A stretch of 64,000 nt of DNA from Rhodobacteraceae bacterium WFHF2C18 (GTDB taxonomy: Bacteria > Pseudomonadota > Alphaproteobacteria > Rhodobacterales > Rhodobacteraceae), in the NCBI GenBank assembly GCA_002166865.1, contig NHTQ01000003.1, positions 1-64,000 on the forward strand. Reading direction: 5' to 3'. Each line of letters begins with the position of its first letter. Position 1 is the stretch's first letter. Shown one piece after another: positions 52,601 through 61,792 of the stretch. The notes under the pieces are model-generated. The model ran no database searches and was not told the DNA's origin. It worked only from the letters and a program-made list of their open reading frames with translations. Made by a program: the position numbers and the translations under genes.

Positions 52601-53053
52601 GTGCTGGGGCTGACCCCCCTGCTGTTCGAACGGTCCCAGCAGGCGCAGTTCCTGAAACCCACGGTCATCACCCTGGTCTACGGGCTGGGCTTCGGCGTGG
52701 TGCTGGTGCTGCTGGTGGTGCCGGCGCTGATGGCCGTCCAGCGCGATGTGCAGCGTCAGACGACCGCGCTGCGCCGCGCCCTGCGGGCCCGGCGGCGTCG
52801 ACTGCGCCTGGGGCTCGTCTTCGGGCTGGCGGCGGTTCTGGGCTGGCTGGCGGCGACCATGGGCACGACCCTGGCAACGGGCCATCTGCCTGCCATCCTT
52901 GGCCGGGCGGCGCCGCCGCTGCAAGAGATGGCGCCAATGACGGCCGCACTGCTGCTTTTCCTGGCGGGGGCCGCGGGGCTGGCGCTGGTCCTTTATGCCG
53001 TCATGGCCCTGAACGAGGCCCTGCGCCGCCGTCAACCTGCGGGACAGCCCTGA
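49646..53053 (+). CDS. RND efflux transporter permease
   Basis: Inner-membrane proton-driven exporter of 1135 residues. It shows the RND repeat structure: TM1 (about 20-38), a large periplasmic loop, TMs 2-6 (N-A-R-T-A-F-W-V-A-A-G-I-P-V and the central L-G-I-V-V-D-D-A-I-V-V-G-E with paired Asp), a second loop, and TMs 7-12 (G-M-T-G-I-I-I-N-D-S-I). After the usual end the protein continues with a basic stretch and two further hydrophobic segments. The substrate is unknown. Its last 22 bp overlap the convergent gene. Confidence 0.93.
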   Translation: MPRRVSAAAGGLLSYFTRHRTAANLLLVVLIVLGLAAMPRMRAQFFPDVVVDSVTVSVVWEGASAEDVDSAIVQVLEPALLAVDGVESSEATSREARASVQLEFEPGWDMGRAADEVQAAVDSVTTLPEEAEEPEVRRGAWRDRVTDVVVTGPVATDQLGLFADEFVTRLFDAGVTRTTIRGVAAPETIVEVPSANLIAHDITMAEIAQAIAGEVDADPAGDVTGANARVRTGVEKRAPDQIAGIVLRSNPDGSKLTVGDVASVRVEGIARELSYFVGEAPAMSIRVDRSARGDAIEIQKTVEEVAARMEETLPEGVSIDLIRTRAESISGRLDTLLDNGLTGLALVVALLFMFLNARTAFWVAAGIPVAMLTAIALMYVGGLTINMVSLFALIITLGIVVDDAIVVGEHADARARKFGEAPAVAAERAAQRMALPVFSATLTTLIAFFGLVAVGGRFGDLIIDIPFTVIVVLLASLVECFLILPHHMAHALHHTRERHWYDWPSRMVNRGFVWVRERLFRPFMAGVIRARYPVLAGVVVLLASQAALFVEGSVQWRFFNAPERGSVTGNFAMAPGATRADSLEMMREMQRATEELGAEYEERHGRNPLDYVMAQVGGNTGYGLAGADTKEPDQLGGIAIELIDADLRPYSSFAFVGELQERVERHPLAETVSFRGWRSGPGGDALDVEFFGAAAEDLKDASEGLKTALSRYPEVSGVQDNLAYDKQELILDLTPQGQALGFTIDDLGRVLRHRLGGIEAATYPVGPRSAAIRVELPEGELTADFLQRTQLRTPRGGYVPLADIVQVDRRTGFSTVRRENGVRLISVTGDISEDDPARAAEVMTALEEDILPGIAAEHQVEWRLSGLSEQEDDFLNDARLGLILTLTGIYLVLAWVFASWTRPLVVMAIIPFGVVGTIYGHYQWDVPLSMFTVVGLLGMTGIIINDSIVLVTTIDEHARERGLVPAIIEGAADRLRPVILTTATTVLGLTPLLFERSQQAQFLKPTVITLVYGLGFGVVLVLLVVPALMAVQRDVQRQTTALRRALRARRRRLRLGLVFGLAAVLGWLAATMGTTLATGHLPAILGRAAPPLQEMAPMTAALLLFLAGAAGLALVLYAVMALNEALRRRQPAGQP

Positions 53054-53841
53054 ATATCCACCGCCTTGCCGTCGCCCAGCACCGTGACGCGCAGGCCCGA
53101 TCGATCCAGCGCGAAGGCCTTGCCGTCGACGTGGTAGAGTTCGGTTTCCGCCACCAGGCTTCGACCGCGGCGTTCCGATTGCGCCTGGGCGACCCAGACG
53201 GCCGGGTTGTCGGTCTCGATCACGGCGATCTCGTCGCGGCCCTGGCGGGGCAGATCGATCTCGGCCCTCAGGCGCAGCCCCCCCTCGATCGGGCTGACCC
53301 GGCAGGACACGTCAGCCACGCCCGCTTCCTGCGCGGTGAAGGGTCTTGCCGCCAGCGCGGCAACGATGCGCGGGTCGCGGCCTGTGTCATCCGCCGGCAG
53401 CTCGTGGGACAGCTTGAGCGAGACGGGCACGCAGACATCCTTGCAGATTCCCATTTCCACCGCGCCCTTCAGGGTCACGGGCCGGCCGGTGTCCTGCGGG
53501 CTGATGCGCAAGGGAAGGACGACGGAGTCGGCATACCCGATGGTGCGCACGCCGTTCTGCGAGATGGTCCGGGGCACCGGCCAGACGACGCCGACATCGC
53601 CCAGGTTGCGCGATCCGCGCCAGTCGAACCGCGGCGGAATGCCGGCATCGCCCGGGGCCCGCCAATAGGTTTTCCATCCGTCGCGCAGGGAAATCTCCAA
53701 CGCGCCGATATGCGTGCCATCGGCCGCCCGCCACCCGGGCAGAAGCCGCGCCTCCACCATGTCGGCCGCCGGCGCGGCCTGCGCCGGGGCAGTCAGGGCT
53801 GCCGCCGCAGCCAGAACCATGAGTGTCATGTACCGGATCAT
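53032..53841 (-). CDS. Exported protein with DsbD N-terminal-type domain
   Basis: About 269 residues from the ATG at 53841; starts at 53859 or 53829 are also possible. A signal peptide (ending near A-Q-A-A-P-A) precedes a domain like the periplasmic alpha-domain of DsbD, with the W-K-T-Y-W-R-A-P-G-D-A-G-I-P-P segment and the redox-type cysteines M-G-I-C-K-D-V-C-V-P. The membrane and thioredoxin parts of DsbD are absent. It may accept electrons from a separate CcdA-like protein. It overlaps the RND gene tail to tail by 22 bp. Confidence 0.82.
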   Translation of the reverse strand: MIRYMTLMVLAAAAALTAPAQAAPAADMVEARLLPGWRAADGTHIGALEISLRDGWKTYWRAPGDAGIPPRFDWRGSRNLGDVGVVWPVPRTISQNGVRTIGYADSVVLPLRISPQDTGRPVTLKGAVEMGICKDVCVPVSLKLSHELPADDTGRDPRIVAALAARPFTAQEAGVADVSCRVSPIEGGLRLRAEIDLPRQGRDEIAVIETDNPAVWVAQAQSERRGRSLVAETELYHVDGKAFALDRSGLRVTVLGDGKAVDIQGCPAG

Positions 53842-53976
53842 GCCCTTGACATGGCCCATCCGCCGGTGAATTCCAAGTCACGTTCCGGCGAGAATTCGCC
53901 GCCTCCATGCGAACCCGCGCTTGCACAGTGGCCTTCGCGCACCCATTGTTGACGCAGTCGGAAACGGAGCCCGCGC

Positions 53977-54561: not shown

Positions 54562-55326
54562 TTAATCGTCCATAAGGCGCCGGATATCTTCCACGCGCTG
54601 CGCGTTGTCGCGCGCCAGCGTGCCATCCGCGCGCCAAAGCGAGTTCTCGAAGCCAACGCGCACCTTGCCACCCATGTCGATCGCATGGCGCAGGCAGGCG
54701 GTTTCCCCCCGGCCAAAGGCGCAGACGGCCCAGTCGGGGACAAGGCCCCGGGCCGCGAGGTCGCGCAGGAACGGGTCGAGGTCCCCCGGCGCGCTGTCGC
54801 CGGTTTCGGCGTAACGCCCCAGAACGAAGAGAAGTTGCAGGCCCCGGTCCGCCAGCAGCGCAGGCGGAAGCACGCGCGTCAGAAGCGCCAGGTCGGCCGT
54901 GTCATAAAGAATGTGCTGCACCGCGATGCCGGCCCCGGCGCAGCGGTCGTAGAAGGCAGCCGCCTGCGCGTTCGGCGTGTCGCGGCAGATTTCGCGGACC
55001 GAGGCCGAGATCAACGCCGCCCCGCTGTTCAGCGCGACCTTGCGCTGATGCTCGGGGCCGTAGCGGCCCGCCGCCTCGGTCGTCGCCTGAATGCGCATGC
55101 CCGGCACGGCCTCGGCCAGTTCGGCCAGTGCCGCGCGGTACAGACCCGCGTCCAGCACGTGTCGGCCGGCGTCATCGCGCAGGTGCAGATGCAACCCGTC
55201 GGCGCCCGCCGCGTGGCAGGCCCGCGCGCAGTCCACGATCTCGCGCAGGGTGACGGGCAGCGCGGGGTGATCGGCCTTTCCGCGCCTTGCCCCGTTGGGC
55301 GCGACCATCAGCCGGGGAAGGCTCAC
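54562..55326 (-). CDS. BKACE family enzyme (beta-keto acid cleavage, DUF849)
   Basis: 254-residue TIM-barrel protein. Family members use Zn2+ and acetyl-CoA to split beta-keto acids into acetoacetate and an acyl-CoA; the founding enzyme cleaves 3-keto-5-aminohexanoate. The zinc pair H-L-H-L-R-D-D appears (about 46-52), with A-P-N-G-A at the N-terminus and the T-T-E-A-A-G-R-Y-G-P segment of one BKACE subgroup instead of S-T-G-G. It is shorter than many relatives. The 4-bp overlap with the aminotransferase suggests that the latter supplies its keto-acid substrate. Actual substrate unknown. Confidence 0.85.
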   Translation of the reverse strand: MSLPRLMVAPNGARRGKADHPALPVTLREIVDCARACHAAGADGLHLHLRDDAGRHVLDAGLYRAALAELAEAVPGMRIQATTEAAGRYGPEHQRKVALNSGAALISASVREICRDTPNAQAAAFYDRCAGAGIAVQHILYDTADLALLTRVLPPALLADRGLQLLFVLGRYAETGDSAPGDLDPFLRDLAARGLVPDWAVCAFGRGETACLRHAIDMGGKVRVGFENSLWRADGTLARDNAQRVEDIRRLMDD

Positions 55327-56648
55327 GTGCCCAGCACCTCCGCCAGGGCGGTGTCGAGCTTGCCCACCAGTTCGTCGATCTGTGCCTCGTCGAGGATGAA
55401 GGGCGGGGCCAGCAGCACGTGGTCACCATTGCGTCCGTCGATCGTGCCGCCCATGGGATAGCAGATCAGCCCGGCGTCGAAGCAGGCGCGCTTGATATCA
55501 CGGTGCACGGCGCGTTCGGGCGGAAACGGCGCCTTGGTTTCGCGATCGGCCACGATTTCCAGGCCGCGGAACATGCCGCGCCCGCGAATGTCACCCACGT
55601 GGGGGTGCCGGCCGAAGGCCCCTTCCAGTGCGGCGGCGAGGGTCTCGCCCATGCGCGCGGCGCGGTCGGTCAACCCGCCGTCCGTCAGCTTGTGAACAAC
55701 CGTGTCCGCGGCCGCGCAGGCGGTGGGATGGCCCATGTAGGTGTGCCCGTGCTGGAACAGGCCCGAGCCCGCCGCGACAGCCGCGTAGATTGTCTGGGAA
55801 CACAGCATGGCGCCGATCGGTTGGTAGCCCGCGCCCAGCCCCTTCGCGATGGTCACGATGTCGGGGCGCACGCCGTCCTGTTCGCAGGCGAACAGCGTGC
55901 CGGTCCGTCCCATGCCGCACATCACCTCGTCGAGGATCAGCAGGATACCGTAGCGGTCGCAGATCTCGCGGATTCGTTTGAAATAGCCCGGCACCGGTGG
56001 CACGGCCCCGGCAGTGGCACCAACCACGGGTTCGGCCACGAAGCCGATCACCTGTTCGGGGCCGACGCGCAGGATCTCGGCCTCAAGCTCGTCAGCCACG
56101 CGGCGTCCGTAGTCCTCGCGCGTCTCGCCCGCGGCGCGATCGCGGTATTCGTAGCACGGCGCGATATGCGAGGTTTCGATCAGCATCGGCGCGAAGGGCG
56201 CGCGCCGCCACGCGTTGCCGCCCGTGGCCAGCGCCCCCAGCGTGTTGCCGTGATAGCTCTGCCGCCGGGCGATGAAGCGGTGGCGCTCCGGCTGGCCGAT
56301 CTCAAGGAAGTACTGCCGTGCGAGTTTCAGCGCGGCCTCCATCGCCTCGGATCCGCCGGAGACGAAATAGACCCTCTCGATCCCGTCGGGCGCGTGGGCG
56401 ATGAGCCGGTCGGCCAGTGCTTCGGCCGGCGCGGAGGTGAAGAATCCCGTATGCGCGAACGGCAAGGTGTCCACCTGCGCCTTGATCGCGGCGATCACGT
56501 CCGGGTCGGAATGGCCCAGGCAAGACACCGCCGCGCCGCCCGACCCGTCAAGGTACCGCTTGCCGTCCGCGTCGATCAGGTAAGGGCCGTCGCCGCGCTG
56601 TGCCCGCGGTGGCGCCGATTTCGTGTGTCTTGGAAAAACGTGGCTCAT
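55323..56648 (-). CDS. Class III PLP-dependent aminotransferase
   Basis: 441 residues from 56648 (MSHVFPRHTKSAPP). The fold-type I class III signature is clear: D-G-S-G-G-A-A-V-S-C-L-G-H, V-S-G-G-S-E-A-M-E-A-A-L-K, L-I-L-D-E-V-M-C-G-M-G-R-T-G with the PLP Asp, and the Schiff-base Lys in T-I-A-K-G-L-G-A-G-Y. This class acts on omega- and beta-amino groups. With the BKACE gene it suggests deamination of a beta-amino acid to a beta-keto acid, then CoA-dependent cleavage. It is divergent from the RpiR regulator. Confidence 0.9.
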   Translation of the reverse strand: MSHVFPRHTKSAPPRAQRGDGPYLIDADGKRYLDGSGGAAVSCLGHSDPDVIAAIKAQVDTLPFAHTGFFTSAPAEALADRLIAHAPDGIERVYFVSGGSEAMEAALKLARQYFLEIGQPERHRFIARRQSYHGNTLGALATGGNAWRRAPFAPMLIETSHIAPCYEYRDRAAGETREDYGRRVADELEAEILRVGPEQVIGFVAEPVVGATAGAVPPVPGYFKRIREICDRYGILLILDEVMCGMGRTGTLFACEQDGVRPDIVTIAKGLGAGYQPIGAMLCSQTIYAAVAAGSGLFQHGHTYMGHPTACAAADTVVHKLTDGGLTDRAARMGETLAAALEGAFGRHPHVGDIRGRGMFRGLEIVADRETKAPFPPERAVHRDIKRACFDAGLICYPMGGTIDGRNGDHVLLAPPFILDEAQIDELVGKLDTALAEVLGT

Positions 56649-56671
56649 CGTATCCTCCGCCCCCGCGCAGT

Positions 56672-56709
56672 TGAAACAGAATACGCAAAAGTTGACAAGG
56701 CGTGAAACA
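56672..56709. promoter_or_regulatory. Candidate RpiR operator: TGAAACA direct repeats
   Basis: TGAAACA occurs at 56672-56678 and 56703-56709, exactly 31 bp apart (about three helical turns), in the 103-bp divergent spacer between the aminotransferase and regulator genes. A TTGACA (56692-56697) between them could be the -35 of the regulator promoter. The arrangement suits binding by the adjacent RpiR protein; this is inference from sequence. Confidence 0.45.
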
Positions 56710-56751
56710 AATGGAACGCTCGCAGCGGAGGTCAACAGGGGGAGGCACGTC

Positions 56752-57615
56752 TTGCAGGGCTCGTTCGAGCAAAGGCTGGCCGAAAGGTACGACGTGTTGA
56801 GCACGCGCCTGCGCGAAGCGGGCGACTACGTGGCCCGCAACCCCGTGGACACGGCGACCCGCAGCCTGCGCGCGGTGGCCGAGGAAAGCGGCCTGTCTCC
56901 GGCGACCTTCTCGCGCCTTGCCCGGACGCTGGACTACGGCAGCTACGAGGACCTGCGCGAAGGCATGCGCGAGACGATCGGGCGCCGCGTCCACAGCTTC
57001 GCCGACCGCGCCGACCGGCTCCAGGGCGACGAGAGCGCGGGCGGCGCCGCCTTTTTCGACGCCCATCGCACAGCGTGCCTGGCCAACCTTCAGGGACTGG
57101 CCGACAGTATCGACCGCGACGAGCTTGTCGCCACGGCCGAGCGCCTGGCGCAAGCGCGCCGCGTGATGCTGGTGGGGGCCCTGGGATCCACGGGCGTGAC
57201 CGAATACATGGCCTACATGGCCAGTTTCCTGACCGACAACTGGCAGATGGCCGGGCGCATGGGGGCCTCGATGGGCAGCGCGCTGGCCGATCTGGACGAC
57301 CGCGACGCACTGGTCATCGTCACCAAGCCGCCCTTCGCGCGCAAGGCGCTGCTCGCCGCCGAGGCTGCGCGCGAGCAGGGCGCCTACGTGGTGGTACTCA
57401 CCGACAGTTACGCCTGCCCGGCCCTGCGGCAGGCGCACGCGGGCTTTCTGGTGCCATCGGACAGCCCGCATTTCTTTTCGTCCTACGTGGCAACCCTTTT
57501 CCTGGTGGAAACGATCATCGGGATGCTGGCCCACCGGGCCGGCCCCGAAGCCACCGAACGGATTGCCCAGGTCGAATACCGGAACCGCCGCCTGGAAGAA
57601 GTGGGCGACGGTTGA
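56752..57615 (+). CDS. MurR/RpiR family transcriptional regulator
   Basis: 287 residues from a TTG at 56752, chosen for the GGGGGAGG ribosome site 6 nt upstream; the frame further upstream reads intergenic sequence. The N-terminal HTH_6 domain (about 1-75) has S-L-R-A-V-A-E-E-S-G-L-S-P-A-T-F-S-R-L-A-R. The C-terminal SIS domain (about 120-260) has V-M-L-V-G-A-L-G-S-T and the T-K-P-P-F segment, and normally binds a phosphosugar or small acid. It lies between the BKACE/aminotransferase genes and the TAXI transporter and probably controls both. Confidence 0.9.
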   Translation: MQGSFEQRLAERYDVLSTRLREAGDYVARNPVDTATRSLRAVAEESGLSPATFSRLARTLDYGSYEDLREGMRETIGRRVHSFADRADRLQGDESAGGAAFFDAHRTACLANLQGLADSIDRDELVATAERLAQARRVMLVGALGSTGVTEYMAYMASFLTDNWQMAGRMGASMGSALADLDDRDALVIVTKPPFARKALLAAEAAREQGAYVVVLTDSYACPALRQAHAGFLVPSDSPHFFSSYVATLFLVETIIGMLAHRAGPEATERIAQVEYRNRRLEEVGDG

Positions 57616-57651
57616 GCCTTCAACGCAATGACATCAACCAAGAGGGAGTAC

Positions 57652-58623
57652 ATGATGTTCTCGAGATTCAAATTCACGATCGCAGGGGCCGCCGCAGCCG
57701 CGTTGTTGGCGCCGGCCGCCTTTGCGCAGGAATTCATCACCATCGGCACCGGCGGCGTGACCGGTGTCTACTACCCGACCGGTGGCGCGATCTGCCGTTT
57801 GGTGAACAAGAACCGCGATGAGCACGGCATCCGCTGTTCGGCGGAATCCACCGGCGGTTCGGTCTACAACCTCAAGACCATTCGCCAGGGCGAACTGGAC
57901 TTCGGCGTGGTGCAGTCCGACTGGCAGTACCATGCCTACAACGGGACCTCGATCTTCGAGGAGGACGGCGCGTTCAAGGATCTCCGCGCGGTCTTCTCGG
58001 TCCATCCCGAGCCCTTCAACGTCGTCGCCCGCGCCGATGCCGGCATCGAGACCTTCGACGACCTCAAGGGCAAGCGCGTCAACATCGGCAACCCCGGATC
58101 CGGCCAGCGCGGCACCATGGAAGTGCTGATGGAGGCCAAGGGCTGGACCAAGGACGATTTCGAACTGGCGACCGAGCTGAAGTCGGCCGAGCAGAGCCAG
58201 GCGCTGTGCGACAACCAGATCGACGCCTTCGTGTTCACCGTGGGCCATCCTTCGGGATCGCTGAAGGAGGCGACGACAGCCTGTGAGGCCGTGCTGGTGG
58301 ACGTGACCGGCCCGGCCGTGGACAAGCTGGTCGAGGAAAACCCCTACTACCGCAAGGCGACCGTGCCCGGCGGCATGTATCGCGGCACCGACGAGGACAC
58401 GCAGACCTTCGGCGTCGGCGCGACCTTCGTCAGCTCGACCGACACCTCCGAGGATGCGGTCTATACGGTCGTGAAATCGGTCTTCGAGAATTTCGAAAGC
58501 TTCAAGGGTTTCCACCCGGCCTTCGCGAACCTCGAGCCGAAGGACATGATATCGAGCGGGCTGTCGGCGCCGCTGCACGCCGGGGCCGAGACTTACTACG
58601 AGGAAAAAGGCTGGATCGAATGA
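57652..58623 (+). CDS. TAXI-family TRAP transporter solute-binding protein
   Basis: 323 residues. Start 57652 (MMFSRFKF) follows AGAGGGAG. The signal peptide is cleaved near A-F-A-QEF. TAXI features are [28 protein letters not shown] and [11 protein letters not shown] pair of Cys (about 43 and 55) may form a disulfide. It captures a substrate, in known cases an organic or amino dicarboxylate, in the periplasm for the following permease. The link with an aminotransferase suggests an amino-acid-like substrate. Confidence 0.94.
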
Positions 58624-58641
58624 TCCGGCCCTGACGACAAC

Positions 58642-58671
58642 TGACCGGGGGCGGCACACCGCCCCCGGTCA
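58642..58671 (+). terminator. Strong hairpin between TRAP binding protein and permease genes
   Basis: A perfect 13-bp stem (58642-58654 with 58659-58671) closing a CACA loop, 19 nt after the stop of the binding-protein gene. No T-run. It probably stabilises the binding-protein mRNA or partly terminates, so that binding protein is made in excess over permease. Confidence 0.7.
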
Positions 58672-58742
58672 CCCAGGTATCCTTTCCACGATACTCTTTT
58701 CACGGCAGCCGCGCATGGCTTCCGGCAATTGGAGGCACACGG

Positions 58743-61358
58743 ATGGCCCAGGACAAGCCCGGCAGCAGCCAGCTGAGCGAGGAAGAGCTTCAGGATCTTG
58801 TCGCCTCGACCGATGCCGGCGCGCGCAGCCCCTCCGGCCCGGTGGGCACCTTCCTGGCCGTGGTGGCGATCGTCTGGTCGCTCTACCAGGTTCTGCTGGC
58901 CTCGCCGATCGCCAACTATGTCATCCCCACGGATATCGTGAACAATTCGCGCCAGGTGCACCTGGCCTTTGCCATCTTCCTGGCCTACACGGCCTATCCC
59001 GCGCTGCGGTCGAGCCCGCGCAGCTACATCCCCATCCAGGATTGGATCATGGCCGTCGTTGGCGCCTTCATCGCGCTTTACGGGCTGATCTTCTATGAAA
59101 AGATCGTCAGCAACGGCGGGCTGGCCGACGACACCGACAAGTGGTTCGCGCTGGCCGGTCTGATCCTGCTGTTCGAGGGCGCGCGCCGCGCCCTGGGCCC
59201 GGCCATGGCCGTGATCGCCACGATCTTCCTGCTCTACGTCTTTTTCGGCGACAGCGAATGGGTCCCGGACGTGATCCGCTGGAAGGGCGCCTCGCTGCAG
59301 AAGGCGATGAGCCACATGTGGACGACCTCCGAGGGCGTGTTCGGCATCGCGCTTGGCGTGTCCACGAAGTTCGTGTTCCTCTTCGTGCTCTTCGGCGCCA
59401 TGCTGGAGAAGGCCGGCGCCGGCAACTACTTCATCAAGATGGCCTTCGGTGCATTGGGCCACCTGCGCGGCGGCCCCGCCAAGGCGGCGGTCGTCGGTTC
59501 GGCCGCGACCGGGCTGATCTCGGGGTCGAGCATCGCCAACGTGGTGACCACCGGCACCTTCACCATCCCGCTGATGAAGCGCGTGGGCTTTACCTCCGAA
59601 AAGGGCGGCGCGGTCGAGGTGGCCTCTTCGGTCAACGGCCAGATCATGCCGCCCGTGATGGGCGCCGCGGCCTTCCTGATGGTCGAATATGTCGGCATCT
59701 CCTATGTCGCGGTCATCACACACGCCTTCCTGCCGGCGGCCATCAGCTACATCGCGCTGGTCTACATCGTCCATCTGGAGGCGGTGAAGAACAACATGCC
59801 CACCCTGGGCGACCGGGTGGTCAGCCTGGGCCGCACGATCGGCGGCATGGCGGCCTTTTTCGCGGGTTTCGCGCTGCTTTGCTACGCGGTCAAGTTCCCC
59901 GTGGGCTGGATCACCGCGCTGGTGCCCGATGGCGCGACATGGATCTTCGCGGTCGTGATCGGTATCGCCTACCTGGGCCTTTTGTGGTTTGCCGCGCAGG
60001 TGCCCGACCTTGAGCCCGACGACCCCATGGCCGAGGACGTGCGCCTGCCGGTCGTGGGCGAGATCTACCGCTGCGGGCTGTATTACCTGCTGCCGATCAT
60101 CGTGCTGGTCTATCTGCTCATGATCGAACAGAAATCGCCCGGCCTCAGCGCCTTCTGGGCCACCGCGCTGATGTTCGTCATCCTGCTGACGCAGCGGCCG
60201 ATCAAGGCGGCCTTCCGCGGCGAAAGCGATATCGCCATGGCCGTGCGCTATGGCGTGATCGACTTTCTCGGCGGGCTGATCGACGGGGCGCGCAACATGA
60301 TCGGCATCGCGCTGGCCACCGCCACGGCCGGCGTCATCGTGGGCACCGTGACGCTGACCGGCGTGGGGCAGGTGATGGCCGGGCTGGTGGAGTTCATGTC
60401 GGGCGGCAACCTCGTGCTGATGCTGCTGATGGTCGGCCTGCTCAGCCTCGTGCTGGGCATGGGGCTGCCGACGACGGCCAACTACATCGTCGTGAGCTCG
60501 CTGATGGCCGGCGTGGTGGTGCAGCTGGGTGCCGAGGGCGGCCTGCTGGTGCCGCTGATCGCCGTGCACCTGTTCGTGTTCTATTTCGGGATCATGGCGG
60601 ATGTCACCCCACCCGTCGGATTGGCCAGTTTCGCCGCCGCCGCCGTGTCCGGGGGCGATGCGATCCGCACGGGTTTCACCGCCTTCTTCTATTCGCTGCG
60701 CACCGTGATCCTGCCCTTCATGTTCATCTTCAACACCGATCTTCTGCTGATCGACGTGGGCTGGCTGCAGGGGATCTTCATCTTCGTCGTCGCGTCGATC
60801 GCGATCCTGGTATTCACCGCCGGGTCGATGGGGTGGTTCCTGACGCGCAACCGCATCTACGAAAGCGTTCTGCTGATCCTCGTGGCGTTCTCTTTGTTCC
60901 GGCCCGATTTCTTCATGGACCGGATCCAGCCGCCCTTCGACACCGTGGAGCCGGCCAAGCTGGAACAGGCACTGGACCGTGCCGAGGTGGGCGACGAAGT
61001 GCGCATGGTGGTCTCCGGCGTCGATTTCCTGACCGGCGAACCCAAGGAGACGACCTTGCTGCTGGCCATCGAGGAAGAGGGCAGCGGCGCCGAGCGGCTG
61101 GAGCGGACGGGGCTGACCATCCGCACCGAAGACGGAGTCGCGAAGCTCGAACAGCCTATGTTCGGCACGCCCTACGAGGAGGTGCTCAAGAGCTTCGACT
61201 TCTACGCCGACACGCCGGTGACGGTCGAATCCGTGAAGGCACCGGCCGATCAGCCGCCGCAGGAACTGATCTTCATCCCGGCCTTCGTGCTTCTGGGCCT
61301 CATTGCCCTGTTGCAGCGCATGCGGATGAAACGCCAGCCCGAAGGAGTGCCCGCATGA
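58743..61358 (+). CDS. TRAP transporter fused permease (4TM + 12TM) with C-terminal DUF3394-type domain
   Basis: 871 residues. The N-terminal small-subunit-like helices (about 33-140) are fused to the large M-type permease (about 140-690), with L-G-P-A-M-A, G-L-I-S-G-S-S-I-A-N-V-V-T-T-G and the second-half G-M-G-L-P-T-T-A-N-Y-I-V. This fused form is standard for TAXI systems. The end (about 715-871) has soluble segments with E-V-R-M-V-V-S-G and a final helix, as in DUF3394-tailed TRAP permeases. It drives sodium-coupled uptake. Its stop overlaps the UspA start by 4 bp. Confidence 0.94.
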   Translation: MAQDKPGSSQLSEEELQDLVASTDAGARSPSGPVGTFLAVVAIVWSLYQVLLASPIANYVIPTDIVNNSRQVHLAFAIFLAYTAYPALRSSPRSYIPIQDWIMAVVGAFIALYGLIFYEKIVSNGGLADDTDKWFALAGLILLFEGARRALGPAMAVIATIFLLYVFFGDSEWVPDVIRWKGASLQKAMSHMWTTSEGVFGIALGVSTKFVFLFVLFGAMLEKAGAGNYFIKMAFGALGHLRGGPAKAAVVGSAATGLISGSSIANVVTTGTFTIPLMKRVGFTSEKGGAVEVASSVNGQIMPPVMGAAAFLMVEYVGISYVAVITHAFLPAAISYIALVYIVHLEAVKNNMPTLGDRVVSLGRTIGGMAAFFAGFALLCYAVKFPVGWITALVPDGATWIFAVVIGIAYLGLLWFAAQVPDLEPDDPMAEDVRLPVVGEIYRCGLYYLLPIIVLVYLLMIEQKSPGLSAFWATALMFVILLTQRPIKAAFRGESDIAMAVRYGVIDFLGGLIDGARNMIGIALATATAGVIVGTVTLTGVGQVMAGLVEFMSGGNLVLMLLMVGLLSLVLGMGLPTTANYIVVSSLMAGVVVQLGAEGGLLVPLIAVHLFVFYFGIMADVTPPVGLASFAAAAVSGGDAIRTGFTAFFYSLRTVILPFMFIFNTDLLLIDVGWLQGIFIFVVASIAILVFTAGSMGWFLTRNRIYESVLLILVAFSLFRPDFFMDRIQPPFDTVEPAKLEQALDRAEVGDEVRMVVSGVDFLTGEPKETTLLLAIEEEGSGAERLERTGLTIRTEDGVAKLEQPMFGTPYEEVLKSFDFYADTPVTVESVKAPADQPPQELIFIPAFVLLGLIALLQRMRMKRQPEGVPA

Positions 61359-61792
61359 CCCGCGAGAAACCGGTGCTCTGCGCCGTCGACATCAGCAACG
61401 AGGACCGCGACGCAAAGGTGCTGGCGCGCGCGGCGCAACTGGCCGAGATGGACAGGGCGCAACTGGACGTCATCACCGTGGTGCCCGATTACGGCATGAG
61501 CGTCGTGGGCAGCTACTTCGACAGCCACCACCACGAAAAGGCGGTCGAGGAAGCACGCCGGCGCCTCAACGAGCTGGTGGAGGAAACGCTCGGCGCCGAG
61601 GCGAACGAGAAGGTCCGCCACATCGTCGCCACCGGAAACGCCTATGACGAGATCCTGCATGTCGCCTCGGCCGACGGCGCGGGGCTGATCGTGATCGGCG
61701 CGCACAAGCCGGATTTCAAGGATTACCTGCTGGGGCCGAACGCCGCCCGGGTGGTGCGCCACTCGGAGTGCTCTGTCTACGTCGTGCGTTGA
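61355..61792 (+). CDS. UspA-family protein coupled to the TRAP transporter
   Basis: 145-residue single Usp domain starting MTREKPVLCAVDISNED. It overlaps the permease gene by 4 bp, an arrangement known from TeaD, which regulates the TeaABC TRAP transporter of Halomonas. The ATP loop usually reads G-x2-G-x9-G-S/T; here G-A-H-K-P-D-F-K-D-Y-L-L-G-P-N departs at the second Gly and at the final G-S. ATP binding may be weak or changed. A regulatory role on transport is inference. Confidence 0.88.
   Translation: MTREKPVLCAVDISNEDRDAKVLARAAQLAEMDRAQLDVITVVPDYGMSVVGSYFDSHHHEKAVEEARRRLNELVEETLGAEANEKVRHIVATGNAYDEILHVASADGAGLIVIGAHKPDFKDYLLGPNAARVVRHSECSVYVVR

What the first reader, a model, noticed from the sequence alone, without database searches (positions are those of the whole stretch)
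54562..61792. Divergent RpiR-controlled locus: TAXI-TRAP uptake plus aminotransferase plus BKACE cleavage, an uncharacterised catabolic route
Seen: a class III aminotransferase and a BKACE enzyme overlap by 4 bp; an RpiR regulator diverges from them and is followed directly by a TAXI binding protein, fused permease and UspA. Known: BKACE enzymes cleave beta-keto acids with acetyl-CoA, and class III transaminases can make beta-keto acids from beta-amino acids. Inference: the compound is imported by TAXI-TRAP, transaminated to a beta-keto acid and cleaved to acetoacetate plus a CoA ester. I know of no described pathway with exactly this set.
Basis: partly seen in the sequence, partly recalled or inferred. 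Interest (0 to 1): 0.72.

Follow-up and report, generated by a model that had tools for sequence, protein, structure and literature searches.

The report
Glutamate-type uptake and cleavage operon
Six neighbouring bacterial genes form one conserved unit that appears to import a glutamate-like amino acid, strip its amino group and split the product into building blocks; a possible food is beta-glutamate, an osmolyte of marine archaea.

Summary
In detail: BKACE-family gene, class III aminotransferase (AT), RpiR regulator, TAXI binding protein, fused permease and UspA. They are a true unit: all six lie together in 53 of 80 related loci, and recur in other orders, some on plasmids. A paired TGTTTCA element lies between the divergent halves. 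New: (1) The TAXI protein is 65% identical to the L-glutamate protein VcGluP; a genome whose replicon sizes fit Cereibacter sphaeroides 2.4.1 has TAXI-permease-UspA-AT-BKACE, and a Na+-dependent L-glutamate TAXI-TRAP was mapped to that organism's chromosome 2. (2) In 10 of the 19 loci without TAXI, AT-BKACE adjoins glutamine-type ABC genes. (3) The BKACE is a distinct clade: zinc ligands and Arg kept, proposed catalytic Glu replaced by Ile, conserved Asp by Asn, a new invariant Glu gained. (4) 3-oxoacid CoA-transferase genes follow the BKACE in one operon; in another locus a 3-oxoadipate-type BKACE and CoA-transferase follow the AT. Best reading: a beta-amino dicarboxylate, perhaps beta-glutamate, is imported, transaminated and cleaved to acetoacetate plus an acyl-CoA.

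The parts
54562..55326 (-). BKACE-family (PF05853) TIM-barrel enzyme of a distinct clade, 254 aa
55323..56648 (-). class III aminotransferase (PRK07483 group), 441 aa, overlaps the BKACE gene by 4 bp
   Evidence: NCBIfam NF005685 774.3 bits (cut-off 485); Pfam PF00202; both run on 55323-56654, two codons longer
56672..56709 (.). putative RpiR operator: two TGTTTCA boxes 31 bp apart around TTGTCAA, read on the - strand
   Evidence: exact 31-bp pair in 50 of 60 divergent loci; only site in the own genome at up to 3 mismatches, reversed control 0
56752..57615 (+). MurR/RpiR-type regulator (SIS domain), about 287 aa, TTG start inferred
   Evidence: SIS over, HTH_6 under its Pfam cut-off (run on 56623-57615); 287 aa is the commonest length, 10 of 61
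57652..58623 (+). TAXI-family TRAP substrate-binding protein, glutamate type
   Evidence: TIGR02122 361.3 bits (cut-off 84.35); 65.1% identity to VcGluP 8s4j over aligned columns
58743..61358 (+). fused TRAP permease (DctM + DUF3394)
   Evidence: TIGR02123 628.4 bits (cut-off 320.65); Pfam DctM and DUF3394
61352..61792 (+). universal stress protein (UspA type), overlaps the permease gene
   Evidence: Pfam PF00582 89 bits (cut-off 24)

Best explanation
The locus is an RpiR-controlled operon pair for uptake and catabolism of a glutamate-type amino acid. Step 1 (homology here, published genetics on an operon that appears to be of the same type): the TAXI protein and DUF3394-type permease import L-glutamate and probably a close isomer. 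Step 2 (inferred): the class III AT moves the amino group of a beta-amino dicarboxylate to a keto acid such as pyruvate, giving a beta-keto dicarboxylate. Step 3 (inferred from context): the BKACE-family enzyme cleaves this with acetyl-CoA to acetoacetate and an acyl-CoA, using Zn held by H46/H48/E227 and R223, and probably a relocated base (E84, just after strand 3) in place of the missing strand-5 glutamate. Step 4 (inferred): a CoA-transferase encoded elsewhere in this genome activates acetoacetate for thiolysis. Most likely specific substrate (weakly supported): beta-glutamate (3-aminoglutarate), giving 3-oxoglutarate and then malonyl-CoA plus acetoacetate. My own estimates: functional unit 0.97; glutamate-type ligand 0.85; acetoacetate-forming cleavage of a beta-keto acid 0.65; beta-glutamate as main substrate 0.35.
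For: Unit: all six genes in 53 of 80 loci. Other orders: TAXI-permease-UspA-AT-BKACE with divergent RpiR, RpiR-AT-BKACE-TAXI-permease-UspA in Thalassospira marina, RpiR-AT-BKACE-TAXI-permease, no UspA listed, in Haematobacter. Ligand: 54 of 54 full-length linked TAXIs (window included) keep VcGluP contacts V44, Y45, Y46, S75, Q93, H123, E125, G156, G203 (contacts from PMC11574862). G051, whose replicon sizes fit C. sphaeroides 2.4.1 (reference sizes recalled), holds TAXI-permease-UspA-AT-BKACE; a TAXI-TRAP with three probably co-transcribed downstream genes was mapped to chromosome 2 of that organism, and its deletion lost the Na+-dependent growth on L-glutamate (PMC12632250, passages). GlnH, GlnP, GlnQ beside AT-BKACE in L009 pass NCBIfam glutamine cut-offs. 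Cleavage: in L140 AT, BKACE, 3-oxoacid CoA-transferase A and B overlap by 4, 4 and 1 bp. In L096 a BKACE over the 3-oxoadipate:acetyl-CoA cut-off (488.6 of 350) starts 7 bp after AT, then CoA-transferase A and B. In L133 and L075 a carnitine-dehydrogenase-like gene (279.4 of 414 and 295.8 of 592 bits, below cut-offs) adjoins the BKACE, a second way to a beta-keto acid. Substrate: Kce E14 is R in 66 of 81. Beta-glutamate was 730 mM in Nitrosopumilus maritimus and higher at depth than at the surface in two seawater profiles (PMC8269262, passages).
Against: The Glu that BKACE15 needs (E171; E171L abolished activity, PMC11961710, passages) is Ile in 81 of 81 clade members and the Asp after the zinc Glu is Asn in 81 of 81; the 7 other family members compared keep both. 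Of 12 fetched TAXI loci without the clade BKACE nearby, 8 keep the AT, and only L096 of these shows another BKACE among the genes I looked at, so the BKACE step is dispensable or done elsewhere. C. sphaeroides genetics show L-glutamate, an alpha-amino acid whose transamination gives no beta-keto acid; some growth on L-glutamate remained in the mutant. R14 is T, S or N in 15 of 81, and the two 3-oxoadipate-like members have Val there. AT-BKACE pairs also adjoin other transporters. No malonyl-CoA decarboxylase was found in the own genome, but the controls gave nothing either. I saw no ligand, enzyme or growth data for beta-glutamate.
Confidence: 0.45

Rival explanations
1. The transporter is an L-glutamate importer, and the AT and BKACE serve another compound or an undescribed glutamate side-route; they share the operon because they are induced together.
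For: L-glutamate genetics on the C. sphaeroides transporter (PMC12632250); glutamate pocket; 71 of 117 genomes with a TAXI match at E 1e-60 lack a clade BKACE match at E 1e-40; TAXI without AT in L102, L103 and L157.
Against: AT-BKACE stays with this transporter through several gene orders and on plasmids, and adjoins glutamine-type genes in 10 of 19 loci without TAXI.
Confidence: 0.25
2. The clade enzyme is no longer an acetyl-CoA-dependent BKACE: it cleaves, hydrolyses or decarboxylates the keto acid with Zn and E84 in another way.
Against: CoA-transferase genes directly after a clade member, and a 3-oxoadipate-type BKACE with CoA-transferase in its place, fit acetoacetate as product; these are two loci.
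Confidence: 0.2
3. The order is reversed: BKACE acts first and the AT transaminates a beta-aminoacyl-CoA, like Kat in lysine fermentation.
For: Kat is a class III AT acting on 3-aminobutyryl-CoA, the product of Kce (PMC3149608, abstract and passages).
Against: Clade BKACEs lack Kce E14 and E143, recalled as substrate-amine contacts; AT occurs beside TAXI without the clade BKACE in 8 of 12 loci.
Confidence: 0.07
4. The substrate is beta-alanine or another small beta-amino acid, giving malonate semialdehyde and formyl-CoA.
For: BKACEs with a beta-alanine:pyruvate transaminase do this in an engineered E. coli (PMC11961710, passages).
Against: The TAXI pocket keeps residues that hold both carboxylates of glutamate in VcGluP.
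Confidence: 0.06

Closest known systems
VcGluP/VcGluQM TAXI-TRAP (V. cholerae) and the C. sphaeroides Rsp_1412/1413 L-glutamate TRAP
   Same: linked TAXIs are 61.3-66.8% identical to VcGluP; same pocket core; a UspA gene after the permease also in V. cholerae; the C. sphaeroides operon appears to be of this type
   Different: VcGluP genes adjoin argR and mdh (PMC11574862), no AT or BKACE named there; pocket positions 40, 157 and 201 differ from VcGluP in 54 of 54 linked TAXIs
Kce / canonical BKACE family (PF05853)
   Different: E141 to Q, E143 to I, D231 to N, G84 to E
Kat-Kce lysine fermentation genes (PMC3149608)
   Same: class III AT with a BKACE and an AtoA/AtoD CoA-transferase
   Different: lysine fermentation, AT acts on CoA esters; no TAXI-TRAP or RpiR named in the passages seen
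Glutamine ABC transporter GlnHPQ
   Same: all three subunits of L009 pass equivalog cut-offs beside the same AT-BKACE pair
   Different: comes with a C45 hydrolase and another RpiR gene; stands where TAXI would be (G056 has a TAXI on another contig too)

Membership tests
BKACE (PF05853) | Pfam score over cut-off and TIM-barrel fold | tested here: met
BKACE (PF05853) | Zn ligands His46, His48, Glu230 and Arg226 (Kce numbering, ligand roles recalled) | tested here: met
   81 of 81, column match
BKACE (PF05853) | catalytic Glu (E171 of BKACE15, matched by me to Kce E143 by equal spacing to the Arg) and Asp231 | tested here: not met
   I and N in 81 of 81; E and D in 7 of 7 others. Filed therefore as a BKACE-family variant clade, not a canonical BKACE
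BKACE (PF05853) | acetyl-CoA-dependent acetoacetate formation | not testable with these tools
   only genomic context
Named BKACE activities (Kce, 3-oxoadipate, 3,5-dioxohexanoate) | NCBIfam equivalog cut-off | tested here: not met
   91.3 of 382, 72.4 of 350, 75 of 430 bits
Class III aminotransferase | PF00202 over cut-off | tested here: met
   322.6 of 30.5 bits
TAXI-TRAP glutamate transporter | TIGR02122 binding protein and TIGR02123 fused permease | tested here: met
   361.3 of 84.35 and 628.4 of 320.65 bits
TAXI-TRAP glutamate transporter | residues contacting L-glutamate in VcGluP | tested here: inconclusive
   9 of 13 compared positions identical in the window; 40, 157, 200, 201 differ; T201 also in T. 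thermophilus 1us4 and G40 in 9oz4
TAXI-TRAP glutamate transporter | binds or transports glutamate | not testable with these tools
   published growth genetics only for C. sphaeroides (PMC12632250)
RpiR/MurR regulator | SIS domain and HTH_6 | tested here: inconclusive
   SIS 44.5 of 25, HTH_6 23.8 of 28.3

The most novel reading that the evidence does not exclude
A widespread alphaproteobacterial route that eats beta-glutamate, with interchangeable feeder modules: TAXI for the free acid, GlnHPQ plus a C45 hydrolase for an amide such as beta-glutamine, and a re-tuned TAXI plus an FAD/GcvT demethylase for an N-methyl form. All feed one AT plus a cleavage enzyme whose catalytic base has moved from strand 5 to the end of strand 3 of the barrel. 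It would be a sink for the most abundant metabolite identified in an ammonia-oxidising marine archaeon.
Probability: 0.22. Interest if true: 0.82.

Novelty: new variant of a known kind. Interest (0 to 1): 0.6.

Why it matters
Beta-glutamate has been measured at 730 mM in a marine archaeon and is more abundant at depth (PMC8269262, passages). Among the papers listed by three library searches that name it (25 of 68 listed; 20 of 78; 2 of 2) and the passages I opened, I saw biosynthesis and osmolyte roles but no catabolic pathway. A conserved operon with a testable prediction could give marine nitrogen and carbon cycling a marker gene. Separately, a BKACE clade without the Glu proposed as base in 2025 tests that mechanism and may show a relocated base or a new reaction. 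The C. sphaeroides operon gives a tractable laboratory host, and suggests what the genes downstream of its L-glutamate transporter do: the main text of that paper has no occurrence of 'aminotransferase', 'BKACE' or 'universal stress'.

Tried and rejected
Chance neighbourhood: rejected. Canonical Kce or another named BKACE activity: rejected by cut-offs and residues. A wide RpiR regulon: not seen; one site in the own genome, and 21 of 23 family sites lie by TAXI or BKACE, the other two by genes that look unrelated by eye. The pocket/demethylase link (TWA in 10 of 10) cannot be counted as ten events: the tree gives one origin, with a long-branch warning about VcGluP. Malonyl-CoA decarboxylase search: uninformative, controls silent. 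Paper search for 3-keto-5-aminohexanoate cleavage plus aminotransferase plus TRAP transporter: 0 papers. Loop and C-terminal differences as proof of lost CoA binding: not pursued, no model coordinates at hand. My first longest-ORF maps miscalled genes in high-GC loci and were replaced by a codon-scored caller of my own (on), which still misses genes, e.g. UspA of L154 (found by tblastn) and the BKACE of L146; it writes M for each first codon. The permease of L154 matched in two frames, not followed up. The 12 TAXI loci without nearby clade BKACE were picked by me from 71 or more such genomes, not drawn at random.
Full report
What is there. The window holds, on the minus strand, a BKACE-family gene (54562-55326) overlapped by 4 bp by a class III aminotransferase gene (AT, 55323-56648), and on the plus strand RpiR (about 56752-57615), a TAXI binding protein (57652-58623), a fused DctM-DUF3394 permease (58743-61358) and UspA (61352-61792). 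Starts of AT, TAXI and RpiR follow relatives' lengths.

It is a unit. A scan of genome contigs with the BKACE gave 119 relatives, of which the best 80 were kept. At identity floors of 40-60%, AT is within 9 kb in 75 of 80, TAXI in 61, RpiR in 60, permease in 59, UspA in 56, and all five together in 53; 73 of the 80 have at least 6.5 kb upstream of the match. The five without AT are L037, L059, L061, L062 and L075. In an even draw of 198 genomes of the family (own genome included), the clade BKACE occurs in 50 (51 places, E 1e-40), the TAXI in 117 (E 1e-60), both in 46, and they lie within 7 kb in 32 of those 46. Under random placement (p = 14 kb / 3 Mb) that has a binomial probability near 6e-64; shared descent is not corrected for. 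The same genes also occur in other orders: divergent RpiR then TAXI-permease-UspA-AT-BKACE in one direction (L083, L089, L094 and a Paracoccus plasmid), RpiR-AT-BKACE-TAXI-permease-UspA on a Thalassospira marina plasmid, and RpiR-AT-BKACE-TAXI-permease, no UspA listed, on a Haematobacter plasmid. On these three plasmids the BKACEs are 41-53%, the ATs 65-71% and the regulators 26-29% identical to the window's, so the regulator is the least constant part.

Regulation. Between RpiR and AT, 60 divergent loci (window included) were compared. TGAAACA/TGTTTCA is in all 60, against at most 9 loci for any 7-mer in 20 sets of mononucleotide shuffles. 50 of 60 have two exact TGTTTCA boxes 31 bp apart, with TTGTCAA between in the consensus; 10 do not. 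In the window the element is at 56672-56709, the only match in the genome at up to 3 mismatches. In the 198 family genomes there are 23 sites in 22 genomes at up to 2 mismatches, none for the reversed pattern; 21 of 23 are within 2.5 kb of a TAXI or clade BKACE match. Eight sites are in genomes with the TAXI but no clade BKACE, and G163 has one by the BKACE although it has no TAXI match. An exact pair was absent from 20 of 24 fetched loci of other arrangements. I read the element as the operator of this RpiR type; binding is not shown.

Transport. The TAXI protein matches VcGluP (8s4j) best in the Protein Data Bank, at 462.7 bits. VcGluP binds L-glutamate at 0.065 uM and L-glutamine at 11 uM (PMC11574862, parts 1 and 2 of 3 of the Results read). 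Of 13 contact positions compared, nine are identical in 54 of 54 full-length linked TAXIs; S40 is G and M201 is T in 54 of 54, D157 is Q (50) or A (4), Y200 is Y (49) or F (5, the window among them). G40 is also in 9oz4 and T201 in T. thermophilus 1us4, so these changes do not exclude glutamate. One held genome (G051) has replicons of 3188524, 943018, 114179, 114045, 105284, 100827 and 37100 bp, which I recall as those of C. sphaeroides 2.4.1. On the 943-kb replicon lie TAXI (70% identical), permease (58% and 48% in two frames), UspA (40%), AT (70%) and BKACE (53%) in one direction. Published work maps a Na+-dependent L-glutamate TRAP transporter of the TAXI type to chromosome 2 of that organism, with three probably co-transcribed downstream genes; the deletion mutant lost Na+-dependent growth on L-glutamate, with some growth remaining (PMC12632250, passages only). 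That those three genes are UspA, AT and BKACE is my inference.

Alternative feeders. Of 102 loci with a called clade BKACE, 11 have a GlnP-type permease, 10 a GlnH-type binding protein, 11 a C45-family hydrolase (one of them, L080, with another transporter) and 10 a second kind of RpiR. In the 80 loci that is 10 of the 19 without TAXI. GlnQ, GlnP and GlnH of L009 pass their equivalog cut-offs (434.9/379, 362.7/303, 372/303), and Paracoccus pantotrophus carries the set under those names. Other transporters also occur: an ABC set in P. aminovorans, one in Sulfitobacter THAF37 and one with a branched-chain-type binding protein in L080; so glutamate-type transport is the commonest but not the only partner. 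In 11 loci an FAD/GcvT protein of the dimethylglycine-dehydrogenase type is present by BKACE-AT. The 10 of these with an adjacent TAXI all have T157/W200/A201 in the pocket, which none of the other TAXIs compared has (54, 18, 6; L091 has T/W/L without such a gene called). These 10 TAXIs form one clade (100/100), so this counts as one event.

Context for the chemistry. In L140 the order is AT, clade BKACE, 3-oxoacid CoA-transferase A and B, overlapping by 4, 4 and 1 bp, with both subunits over their subfamily cut-offs. In L096 the TAXI set and AT are followed, after 7 bp, by a canonical family member that passes the 3-oxoadipate:acetyl-CoA cut-off (488.6 of 350), and then CoA-transferase A and B. 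In L075 and L133 a carnitine-dehydrogenase-like gene, below its NCBIfam cut-offs, adjoins the BKACE, a possible route from a beta-hydroxy to a beta-keto acid. These are four loci, but they point the same way: a beta-keto acid enters, acetoacetate leaves, and in one case the substrate is of 3-oxo-dicarboxylate type. Against this, of 12 fetched TAXI loci without the clade BKACE nearby, 8 keep the AT (L095-L101, L139), three do not (L102, L103, L157), and L104 has only a distant AT.

Substrate. A glutamate-type transporter, an AT, and a cleaver of beta-keto dicarboxylates fit beta-glutamate: transamination gives 3-oxoglutarate, cleavage gives malonyl-CoA plus acetoacetate (reaction type of the family; inference here). 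Beta-glutamate is an osmolyte of methanogens and beta-glutamine of Methanohalophilus (PMC1224877, passages). It was the most abundant identified metabolite of Nitrosopumilus maritimus at 730 mM and more abundant at depth than at the surface (PMC8269262, passages). Three library searches that name beta-glutamate (capped lists) showed no catabolic route among the titles, abstracts and passages I saw. The own genome has an adjacent pair of CoA-transferase family genes (PF01144). The direct test is binding and coupled assays, then mutants in C. sphaeroides.

Verdict. I rate it a new variant of a known kind.

Noticed in passing
G000:C5, L119:6344-8630: A second AT-BKACE pair in the same genome: AT 45% identical, BKACE over the 3,5-dioxohexanoate cut-off (481 of 430 bits), after ABC transporter genes that look polyamine-type by eye.
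   Followed up: partly
G000:C9, L120:6695-12064: A BKACE next to genes that look by eye like a GlxA-type regulator, an SDR, a 3-hydroxyacyl/carnitine-type dehydrogenase and an acyl-CoA dehydrogenase.
   Followed up: no
L118:8001-11436: Clade BKACE beside a class IV aminotransferase and a BhcC-like 3-hydroxyaspartate aldolase (665.1 bits, just under the cut-off of 690), a different enzyme set around the same BKACE.
   Followed up: partly
L136 (G176:C4:243788-243825): An operator-like site with one mismatch in a region that looks suf-type by eye, in a genome without TAXI or clade BKACE matches.
   Followed up: partly
L154:6954-9567: The permease gene of the putative C. sphaeroides operon matches the window permease in two reading frames.
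   Followed up: no
L127 and L124: Sinorhizobium meliloti pSymB (CP073680) carries a clade BKACE about 19 kb from a TAXI gene 61% identical to the window's; no class III AT among the listed features beside the BKACE, in an incomplete gene table.
   Followed up: partly
window 53032-53859: A DsbD N-terminal-domain protein with no NCBIfam match, next to YqgE/AlgH.
   Followed up: no
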